A DNA stretch of 64,000 nt from Eublepharis macularius (taxonomy: Eukaryota > Chordata > Lepidosauria > Squamata > Eublepharidae). The stretch lies in assembly GCF_028583425.1 (NCBI RefSeq), contig NC_072791.1:197818311-197882310 (forward strand), in the 5' to 3' direction. Under the pieces are notes generated by a model. The model was not told the DNA's origin. It saw nothing but the letters and a program-made list of their open reading frames with translations, and made no database searches. Shown here one piece after another: positions 2,473 through 5,400 of this stretch. The position numbers were made by a program, and so were the translations under genes. Every line of letters starts with the position of its first letter. The first letter of the stretch is position 1.

Positions 2473-5400
2473 GTAAGTCTTAGAAACAATATAAAGAAAC
2501 TAATATAAAAGTAACATATAATGTGCTCTTAGATGACTTTCTAAACTTTTACTTTTAAAATAGTAAAAAGTCCTGTAGCACCTTTAAGACTAACCAACTT
2601 TATTGAGGCATAAGCTTTCAAGAACCACAGCATCTGATGAAGAGAGCTGTGGTTCTCAAAAGCTTATACCTCAATTTAGTTGGTTATTCTTAAAGGTGCT
2701 ACTGGACTTTTTACTATTTTGCAACTACAGACTAACATGGCTAACACCTCTGGATCTTTTACTTTTAAGAAAGTCATAGATTTAACTGGCTCCTCTCGGT
2801 AAGTTACGAGTAGGATCATAGCCCAAGTTATGTCAGAATTCACTCCTGTCTGAGTGACAGAGTCATACTGAAACTATGAGCCCTTTAAAAGCAAATAGGT
2901 GTTTGTAATGTGCAAATATACTTAGAACTTTAATAATGCACTAATATATCTGACCCTGTTGACAGTTCAGTTACATACAGGTGAGTGTAGAATTGTTATA
3001 TCAGAAAAAATTAAATTAGTGATAAGACATAAATATTTATCTGTTTCTTTTGGAAATTACAGTACCAAAATACTAAGTCATATTTTTCCTTTACAGAAAT
3101 TAAGAGGCCAGACAGAAGCACTTTATATATTAACCAAATGTGGCAGTACACGTTTTGAATTCATATTTACAAATGTTGTTCCTGGGAGTCCCAGACTTTT
3201 TACCTCAGTTATTGCTGTGCACAGGTACTTAAGTTAAGTTTGGAATCGGGAGATGCTTGCAAAAAAACCCAACTCTAATCAAATTGGTTTGGTTGCATCT
3301 TGTGTTTAAACTATCAGAATTTTAAAAATGGCATATTAAGGCTTGAATTTGAAATAATTTGTCATTTTCATGAAACACAACTAGCACTGAATAAGCGTAA
3401 AAGTTTTTTAAAAATATGATTGTTTATTTCATGTGTAAAATAGTAGAGTCCAGTAGCACCTTTAAGACTAACCAACTTTATTGTAACATAAGCTTTTGAG
3501 AACCACAGCTCTCTTCGTCAAATGCATCTGACGAAGAGAGCTATGGTTCTCGAAAGCTTATGCTGCAATAAAGTTGGTTAGTCTTAAAGGTGCTACTGGA
3601 CTCTTTACTATTTTGCAACTACAGACCAACACGGCTAACTCCTTCGGATCTATTTCATGTGTAAATGTAATTAATTGCTTGTCTCAAATATAAAGAACTG
3701 TGAACTGTTCTAAATTTGGCATGAGGTGTTGCTTGTCACAATTTGGTTTTGGTTCCCAGTGTGATTCCTCTAACTATTTTAGACCCAGTGTTAATAGTGG
3801 GAATAGTGCAGTGGGAAGAGCCTGTGCTGCAGCAGGCCCTTCCATCGAAAGAATATTCCAACTTAGCTGACTAGACTCTGCTCAGTGGTGGAATACAATG
3901 TAATCATTCCAGGCACAGCCCAGCACCCCACTCAAAAATATGGTAAGAATTGTGGGGATTAATACAATTACAAAGAGGTGTCTTAACACTAAGTCGGTTG
4001 CAAAGACCCAGGCCCCCACCCTTGCATGAGTAAGTTTAACAGTTCATCTCTTCAGAGTATCGGTTTCCTTACTCTCTTGTTAAGATTATTTTAATGTAAA
4101 TACCGTACGCTTGCAACATTTCACAAATGAAAATAGAAATACATGAGAGATACCAACATCCCTATTCTCGTCTCAAGGATCACTGCACAGGAACTTCCCA
4201 GTTACAATCTGCCTGCTGCATTTAAAAGCTAAGAGGTGCGCTGGGGTAAAGATATCCCAGAAGGCATGATTGTCTGCTGCATATCAACAGTTCAAAATAT
4301 ACCTCTGCATCTGGAGTATGTGAAATGGCAGGCTTAGTTCGTTTGGAAATGTATCTGTTAAAGACGCGAGGGATAGAGTGAACTCTGAAGAATGACAACT
4401 CTAGTAGTCAAGCAAACAGAACTTTAATATGGCACCCCCCAGAAGGGAGGCAGTAAGGACAGTGATTTACGAATAGGGAGACACTAGAAAATATAGGCTG
4501 TCCCAGCTAAATATGACTGAGCCTGATGCTTTATATATGCAAATCATGCAGTCTACTGAACAACTCTAATAAGAGTCAGGAAAATTTATCTGTTTTATAA
4601 GAGAATGTTCATTCTATGAAGTTAATTTTGATACAGTCAGCTTCAGGTTTTGTGGGTGAGTGGAAATGGCAGTTGCCTTATGTGTGATTTCTAATGTAAA
4701 AAGGCAGCATTTATATCTTCATGAATTAAACTATAGATCAGATCCAGAGATACACATATATCAAAAGGCACTAAACATACCGTAGAAAGTAGATATATAT
4801 TAATCCTTTTGTGTACTGCTTCACTGTTATTCCCATTTCTGCATGCTCAGCTTTGTGTCCATTTCTGGAAGTGGAGCTGCTGTGCTACATCATACAGGAT
4901 TCGTTTGTCACCAGTATACATCAAGATCCTATGTAATTTTCCATACCTGGAAGATAGTGGATGTGTGGTTGTTTCTTGTGCAGAGAGAGGATCCCATTGG
5001 AGACTGTTCACTGAGCTTGAACAATTAATTGCAATGGGAAAATGTTGAACTGGGAAAATTGTGTATAACTATCATTTTTGTACTTTTAGACTCCCTGATT
5101 CCTAGGGAATAATACCTAATTTCTGTTCCACAATGTTATGAAATGGCTTTTCATCCATTGAAATTTTTAGTTGGAACATAGAATTTCCCATAGGTCTTTG
5201 AAATATAGTAGTTGACTGTATAACGTAAATGTATCTCTCTGACTTTAAACACAGACATTTCATAGAATAGTGATTAAAACACTGCAAAGTACAGCAAATT
5301 TTAGTTTTTTCAAAAATGTAAAATTTGTCTTTTACCTTTCTCTTTCTCAAAGCTATGACTTTTGCTCGAATTATTTTTCAGTACAGCAAAATCAAAAGAG

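What the first reader, a model, noticed from the sequence alone, without database searches (positions are those of the whole stretch)
3440..3650. Self-contained hammerhead palindrome that moves by target duplication
Directly seen: a 211-base inverted repeat with a 15-base direct duplication (TATTTCATGTGTAAA), nothing else inside, and a hammerhead-like unit with all invariant core bases on the plus strand. Two units face each other and share ATGCAT as the centre, so the RNA could fold as one long hairpin or as two ribozymes. Penelope-like elements are known to carry hammerheads in their terminal repeats; a minimal mobile unit made only of two opposed ribozyme ends is, to my knowledge, little described. 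It lies in a BBS5 intron in sense orientation.
Basis: partly seen in the sequence, partly recalled or inferred. Interest (0 to 1): 0.75.

Follow-up and report, generated by a model that had tools for sequence, protein, structure and literature searches.

The report
Head-to-head insertion of a Penelope-like element
This 211-base palindrome looks like a scar left when a Penelope-like jumping gene copied the start of its RNA from both sides of one cut in the DNA; similar scars elsewhere in the same genome record how these poorly understood elements insert.

Summary
Window 3440-3650 is an insert with a 15-bp target-site duplication (TSD) and two 80-nt arms, 94% complementary, around ATGCAT. Its plus strand carries a minimal hammerhead-like core. 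One detail was missed: only the right arm carries a "tail" of about 33-39 nt.

Of 104 genome places read, all chosen by similarity to this copy, 95 are head-to-head with exactly one tailed arm, 2 with two, 2 with none seen, and 5 are single units. TSDs were detected in 49 of 62 copies (control 1.5%). Centres vary. The arms of one copy share rare variants, while tailed and untailed arms show no fixed differences. This fits a structure made afresh at each insertion better than a palindrome that propagates itself.

Best reading: a by-product of a Penelope-like element (PLE). Both cut strands prime reverse transcription of the first ~129 nt of one RNA, from two start sites ~39 nt apart, and the cDNAs meet at the palindromic RNA 5' end. 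Inverted PLE repeats with a tail on one are published (PMC3846280); I found the one-tail rule, zero-loop centres and shared variants in none of my literature searches. No tailed arm in the tail-chosen set begins at the predicted ribozyme cut. No carrier ORF of this family was found.

The parts
3425..3439 (.). target-site duplication, left copy (TATTTCATGTGTAAA)
   Evidence: 49 of 62 sampled copies show a duplication of their own
3440..3524 (-). untailed arm: inverted unit from about unit position 94-97 to position 2; ribozyme core broken at C3 and G12
3522..3527 (.). centre ATGCAT, shared by both arms; unit positions 2-7, inferred 5' end of the template RNA
3522..3650 (+). tailed arm: unit positions 2-130
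3524..3563 (+). minimal hammerhead-like motif: 4-bp stem I, CTGACGA, one extra A, stem II, GAAA, no helix III; predicted cut 3559/3560
   Evidence: descriptor; no Rfam hammerhead hit
3612..3650 (+). tail (unit 92-130), between the two inferred reverse-transcription start sites; its last ~33-36 bases are on this arm only
3651..3665 (.). target-site duplication, right copy
2546..2768 (+). second, independent head-to-head insertion of the same family, with its own duplication CTTTTACTTTTAA (2546-2558 and 2756-2768) and an asymmetric centre

Best explanation
[quoted passage not shown] Steps: (1) A PLE endonuclease cuts both strands about 12-15 bp apart [TSDs shown; enzyme inferred]. (2) An RNA that starts at unit position 2, about 33 nt after a TATA-like CTATRTATC, is the template [inner ends shown; promoter inferred]. 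(3) Both cut 3' ends prime reverse transcription of that RNA: one at the end of the tail (unit ~130, or ~123), the other ~39 nt further in (unit ~84-101, peak 91), the latter in a minority of copies with microhomology to the target [end positions shown; priming inferred]. (4) Both cDNAs often run to the RNA 5' end, whose first six bases are the palindrome AUGCAU. Their identical 3' ends pair with each other, and fill-in completes the insert, giving arm-ATGCAT-arm with no loop [shared centre shown; pairing inferred]. When cDNAs stop early or jump templates, other centres and tandem pieces result, the pieces mainly in the untailed arm. The hammerhead lies between RNA start and RT start and is carried along; it plays no visible part in this insertion.
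For: One-tail rule: of 40 places chosen only by the palindrome centre, 36 had exactly one tailed arm, 1 two, 3 none at the cut-off of 118 (36/40 against one half, p 1.9e-7). Of 104 distinct places, 95 have one tail, 2 both, 2 none seen, 5 are solo. Untailed arms end at unit 84-101 in 52 of 62; tailed arms at 121-130 in 62 of 62, which is partly how they were defined. TSDs: 49 of 62 at score 8 or more against 1.5% of 1220 mismatched pairs; median 12 bp in the 51 at score 7 or more. Microhomology of 3 nt or more at the untailed junction in 15 of 49, null 7.5%; 2 of 49 at the tailed side. Same template: arms of one copy are closer than tailed and untailed arms of different copies (0.081 vs 0.091, 0 of 10000 permutations) and share 43 minority variants against 18.3 expected; in the centre-chosen set 26 against 12.3. 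In L085 and L131 both arms carry the same upstream extension. Centres: 13 of 35 are one shared ATGCAT with no loop; none is two ATGCAT end to end. Tandem pieces: 11 of 95 in the untailed arm, 1 of 95 in the tailed. In vitro a PLE protein from Anolis cuts and extends both strands and starts at two internal sites that bound the tail (PMC11167929, main text).
Against: No ORF-bearing element with this unit was found; of 78 GIY-YIG matches I read the two ends of one ORF, and it does not carry the unit. The same in vitro study saw no difference in start site between strands, so the one-tail rule needs an extra cause. Within-copy arm distances (7-8%) are only about 1 point below between-copy ones, so most divergence is later mutation; over unit 8-55 alone the centre-chosen set gives 128 of 5000 permutations. 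In the first set tailed arms of different copies are even closer (0.076), which I put down to their being chosen by likeness; in the centre-chosen set they are not (0.085), and untailed arms give 0.075. Mean overlap at the untailed junction (0.73) does not exceed the null mean (0.83), because 15 of 49 copies have gaps instead; only the share with 3 nt or more does. Two copies (W2, L069) share an unusual centre. 22 of 35 centres are not the shared ATGCAT. In the only unbiased sample two of four well-preserved insertions are solo and untailed. The tail-chosen set selects against rearranged tailed arms; in the 30 newly fetched centre-chosen places (28 of them one-tail) the tandem count is 4 against 0.
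Confidence: 0.68

Rival explanations
1. The palindrome is a self-contained mobile unit: its transcript (arm-arm-tail) is reverse transcribed as a whole and the centre is inherited.
For: Stand-alone palindromes with a TSD are numerous. The one-tail rule would follow trivially from one founder. W2 and L069 share an unusual centre. Short centre deletions could come from skipping the hairpin.
Against: No fixed differences between tailed and untailed arms in 36 copies (156 tests, smallest p 0.077). Rare variants shared within copies. Upstream extensions present on both sides in L085 and L131. Tandem pieces mainly in the untailed arm. Five solo copies, in two of which (L086, L098) a duplication is visible in the printed flanks.
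Confidence: 0.13
2. Self-priming: one strand is copied from the RNA and its 3' end folds back and copies itself (the explanation offered for rotifer PLEs, there on an antisense template).
For: Arms of one copy share variants. Proposed in PMC3846280 for head-to-head PLE repeats (passages).
Against: Fold-back needs a loop, yet 13 of 35 centres are a zero-loop ATGCAT. A fold-back copy would be expected to run through the tail, yet exactly one arm has it in 36 of 40, and the other starts near a preferred site, in 15 of 49 with target microhomology of 3 nt or more.
Confidence: 0.13
3. A retrozyme-like or viroid-like hammerhead replicon: tandem ribozyme monomers self-cleave and the circular or cleaved RNA is the template.
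For: Hammerhead-like core; arrays of 42- and 47-nt monomers in L088 and L097; core columns outside CpG change less (0.025) than other columns (0.044); in L134 the unit match ends at position 40, next to the predicted cut.
Against: 0 of 40 tailed arms start at the predicted cut (37-43). The arrays lie inside untailed arms and look like template jumps. No hammerhead covariance hit in 7 loci with tandem pieces. Two core columns at CpG decay (0.16 and 0.29) and only 92 of 194 arms keep all 12 core letters.
Confidence: 0.05

Closest known systems
Inverted pseudo-LTRs of Penelope elements in Adineta vaga (PMC3846280)
   Same: head-to-head repeats at one insertion, TSDs of 8-10 bp in the cases I saw (some cases without), a 31-bp tail optional on one of the inverted repeats, in one case the inverted copy 37 bp shorter, palindromes at the 5' end of some repeats (passages read)
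   Different: there the repeats flank an ORF or a captured gene and copies are few; here the insert is only the two ~90-130-nt arms and the copies are many
PAc, Poseidon-type PLE of Anolis carolinensis (PMC11167929)
   Same: hammerhead just before and at the ORF start; two internal RT start sites bounding a tail; both target strands cut and extended in vitro (main text read). Taking unit position 15 as the ORF start, the cut falls 25-26 nt on (paper: 26) and the tail end 116 nt on (paper: 111-118): my inference, no sequence alignment
   Different: PAc has an ORF and tandem copies; this unit has no start codon at that point (commonest letters), and its outer ends show a one-tail rule that the in vitro assay did not
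Minimal type I hammerheads of PLEs (Cervera and de la Pena 2014; Lunse 2017: not held, known through passages of PMC7761336 and PMC6155905)
   Same: no helix III, location in pseudo-LTRs
   Different: one extra A before stem II; no Rfam hit; no sign of a role in the insertion
L1 twin priming (recalled)
   Same: both cut strands prime on one RNA, with inverted 5' part and microhomology
   Different: twin priming gives non-overlapping inverted pieces, here the same stretch is copied twice

Membership tests
Penelope-like element insertion (pseudo-LTR type) | head-to-head terminal units with a tail on one | tested here: met
   95 of 104 places; 36 of 40 chosen by the centre alone
Penelope-like element insertion (pseudo-LTR type) | short variable target-site duplications | tested here: met
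   49 of 62 at score 8 or more, control 1.5% of 1220
Penelope-like element insertion (pseudo-LTR type) | ORF with RT and GIY-YIG endonuclease belonging to the same family | tested here: inconclusive
   78 GIY-YIG matches in the genome, but the one ORF whose ends were read has no unit match; the 211-bp insert is too short to hold one
Penelope-like element insertion (pseudo-LTR type) | longer copies with further sequence (pseudo-LTR) upstream of the ribozyme | tested here: met
   L132-L135 carry related sequence upstream of unit position 2; the matched stretch is 60-62 nt at 93%, and the ~140 nt before it look alike by eye
Hammerhead ribozyme, Rfam models | match to a hammerhead covariance model | tested here: not met
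Hammerhead ribozyme, minimal type I | core CUGANGA..GAA..UH with stems I and II | tested here: inconclusive
   met only with one extra unpaired A before stem II
Hammerhead ribozyme, minimal type I | self-cleavage | not testable with these tools
   needs an RNA assay
Retrozyme | insert bounded by ribozyme cut sites | tested here: not met
   0 of 40 tailed arms start at unit 37-43
Retrozyme | circular RNA intermediate | not testable with these tools
   needs RNA data

The most novel reading that the evidence does not exclude
PLEs can finish an insertion without separate second-strand synthesis: the two cut strands each extend on the same RNA, regularly from different start sites (hence one tail), and the two cDNAs zip together through a palindrome at the RNA 5' end. 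A self-complementary transcription start would then be a working part of the element.
Probability: 0.4. Interest if true: 0.72.

Novelty: new variant of a known kind. Interest (0 to 1): 0.46.

Why it matters
How PLEs finish an insertion, and why their terminal repeats so often lie head-to-head, is left open in the papers I read (PMC3846280 passages, PMC11167929 main text). Many tiny, clean insertions in one genome make it testable by counting: one-tail rule, centre type, microhomology, arm kinship. If right, it explains why such genomes hold many ~200-base palindromes, a source of hairpin RNA in introns, and it removes the need for a ribozyme-driven replicon.

Tried and rejected
Rfam at gathering and at E up to 5-10: the matches at lax thresholds were miRNA, snoRNA, sRNA, plastid-UTR and other cis-regulatory models fitted to any long hairpin; rejected as families. 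Hammerhead without the extra A: no hit in the 131 sequences scanned; one unrelated hit in the whole window at 42155-42110 minus, and 4 hits in 50 shuffles. Looking for the carrier ORF through GIY-YIG: one ORF read at both ends, no unit. A first exact-match TSD finder missed decayed duplications and was replaced (then 50). A looser overlap count suggested strong microhomology; the stricter one gave an excess only in the share with 3 nt or more, which I use. A looser count of shared ATGCAT centres gave 12 of 35, an exact one 13. Target motif: duplications begin T-rich and end A-rich (44 copies), suggesting symmetric cuts; the flanking C and G are biased by how duplications were extended, so I do not rest on them. 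The early idea that either arm may start at either site was rejected by the one-tail count.

Limits: the 40 best-scoring places per search favour copies like this one; the only unbiased sample is 200 kb, with four well-preserved insertions (85-93% identity in their best arm), of which one (L020) is plainly head-to-head, one (L011 8490) has opposed pieces 235 nt apart and two are solo and untailed, besides weaker, older matches. So how often insertions are head-to-head is not settled.

Full report
What is there. At 3440-3650 there is a 211-bp insert flanked by a perfect 15-bp duplication. I number the unit from window 3521 (position 1) to 3650 (position 130). The right arm is unit 2-130. The left arm is the inverted unit from about 94-97 to 2. 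The arms share ATGCAT (unit 2-7). They differ at five of 80 compared columns. Only the right arm has unit 98-130. The insert lies in a BBS5 intron with the tailed arm in the gene's sense. A second, independent copy sits 0.7 kb upstream, at 2546-2768, with its own duplication and a different centre.

How common. A search with the insert scored 40 of 4398 first-look candidates; these 40 places are all palindromic. In 20 systematic 10-kb stretches I found four well-preserved insertions, plus weaker matches; four in 200 kb extrapolates to tens of thousands in the genome, with wide error. Of these four, one is plainly head-to-head, one has opposed pieces 235 nt apart, and two are solo and untailed, so the share of head-to-head copies is not settled. 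To avoid choosing by structure I drew two more sets of 40: by the right-hand 85 bases only and by the central 101 bases only. Together 104 distinct places were read.

Anatomy across copies. Of the 40 chosen by the tail half, 35 are head-to-head and 5 are solo. Of the 40 chosen by the centre (30 newly fetched, 10 already held), 36 have exactly one tailed arm, 1 has two, 3 have none. Of those three, one (L121) ends at unit 116, just short of the cut-off, and in one (L099) one arm runs to the edge of the fetched stretch. If tails were independent per arm about half would have exactly one; p is 1.9e-7. Over all 104: 95 one tail, 2 both, 2 none seen, 5 solo. Untailed arms end at unit 84-101 in 52 of 62 with the peak at 91; tailed arms end at 130 in 47 of 62 and at 121-124 in 11. 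The distance of ~39 nt is that of the 'tail' in the literature (30-40 bp).

Insertion marks. 49 of 62 copies have a detectable duplication at score 8 or more, against 1.5% of 1220 mismatched pairs; the median length is 12 bp among the 51 at score 7 or more. At the untailed junction 15 of 49 show 3 nt or more of microhomology, null 7.5%, while the mean overlap (0.73) is not above the null mean (0.83) because 15 of 49 show gaps; at the tailed side 2 of 49 overlap by 3 nt or more. Duplications tend to begin with T and end with A (44 copies), so both cut strands would present A-rich 3' ends; this is suggestive only, since duplication limits are ambiguous.

Made afresh, or inherited? The arms of one copy are more alike than tailed and untailed arms of different copies (0.081 vs 0.091; 0 of 10000 permutations; 62 copies, 17 of 79 dropped for lacking a usable pair) and share 43 minority variants against 18.3 expected. 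Tailed arms of different copies were closer still there (0.076), as they had been chosen by likeness. In the centre-chosen set, 36 copies used and 4 dropped, within is 0.070 against 0.0785 between over unit 8-88 (6 of 5000 permutations), 128 of 5000 over 8-55 and 5 of 5000 over 56-88; tailed arms among themselves give 0.085, untailed 0.075; shared variants are 26 against 12.3. No column separates tailed from untailed arms (156 tests, smallest p 0.077). [quoted passage not shown] So both arms are likely copies of one RNA or one source, made at the insertion. Against this, W2 and L069 share a centre, which may be recurrence at a 2-nt GC match or inheritance.

Where the arms begin. 28 of 40 tailed arms and 26 of 35 opposite arms begin at unit 1-6; none of the 40 tailed arms begins at 37-43, the predicted ribozyme cut. 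In the longer copies CTATRTATC stands 33 nt before unit 2 (L085, L131-L135, read by eye). I infer that unit 2 is the transcription start. The insert is then the RNA from its 5' end to the internal RT start sites. Of 35 centres in the tail-chosen set, 13 consist of a single shared ATGCAT with no loop and none of two ATGCAT end to end; 6 others with both arms reaching unit 7 or less carry other offsets or extra bases, and 16 have a truncated arm. This suggests that the two identical cDNA ends can pair through the hexamer. Four copies with both arms truncated at 17-28 have nearly equal truncations, inside the stem II inverted repeat (my reading), which fits the same idea.

Jumps. Among the 95 one-tail copies tandem pieces occur in the untailed arm of 11 and the tailed arm of 1 (the one, L007, is a 19-nt match and doubtful). 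By set: centre-chosen 4 against 0, tail-chosen 6 against 0, full-query 1 against 1; the tail-chosen set disfavours broken tailed arms. L088 and L097 hold arrays of about 42 and 47 nt. I read these as template jumps from the RNA 5' end, some possibly expanded later as minisatellites.

The ribozyme. The extra A departs from the canonical core (recalled). No Rfam hammerhead model hits. 92 of 194 arms keep all 12 core letters; the two CpG core columns decay (0.16, 0.29), while the other core columns change at 0.025 against 0.044 elsewhere, a mild difference that could reflect past constraint in the source elements. In Anolis PAc the ribozyme cleaves only with the protein present and its mutation did not affect insertion in vitro (PMC11167929).

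Known and new. PMC3846280 (passages) describes head-to-head PLE repeats, a tail on one, a shorter inverted copy, palindromes at the 5' ends of some, and proposes self-priming on an antisense template. PMC11167929 (main text) shows both strands cut and extended and two internal start sites, with no difference between strands. I saw no paper stating the one-tail rule, the zero-loop centre or shared arm variants in searches (listings, plus the main text of one paper and passages of four); the library is open-access only and key papers (Cervera 2014, Lunse 2017, Craig 2021) were not held. So the object is a known kind in a minimal, repeated form, and the mechanism reading is the newer part.

Weak points. 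No ORF-bearing relative of this unit was found, so PLE membership rests on anatomy. The samples favour copies like the query. Pairing of cDNA ends and the promoter are inferred.

Noticed in passing
window 2546-2768: a second head-to-head insertion of the same family with a different target duplication and an asymmetric centre like that of L069
   Followed up: partly
window 34792-34844, 36253-36357, 52998-53050: older, partial copies of the unit (70-78% identity), so the family has a long history here
   Followed up: no
L088 19-390 and L097 15-382 (oriented with the tailed arm on the + strand, as): arrays of about 42-nt and 47-nt hammerhead-containing monomers inside the untailed arm
   Followed up: partly
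L134 97-135 (unit match, minus strand): a long copy in which the unit match ends at unit position 40, next to the predicted ribozyme cut, and is followed by unrelated sequence; a single case
   Followed up: no
G000:C6:43234039-43234290 (-) and 43237617-43237868 (+): two open GIY-YIG frames about 3.3 kb apart, placed head-to-head: possibly a long palindromic PLE copy that includes the ORF (the stretch could not be fetched)
   Followed up: no
L011 8490-8841: two unit pieces in opposite orientation separated by 235 nt, most of which matched no other fetched locus
   Followed up: no
window 42155-42110 (-): a lone canonical-descriptor hammerhead-like match; 4 such matches arose in 50 shuffles, so probably chance
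   Followed up: partly
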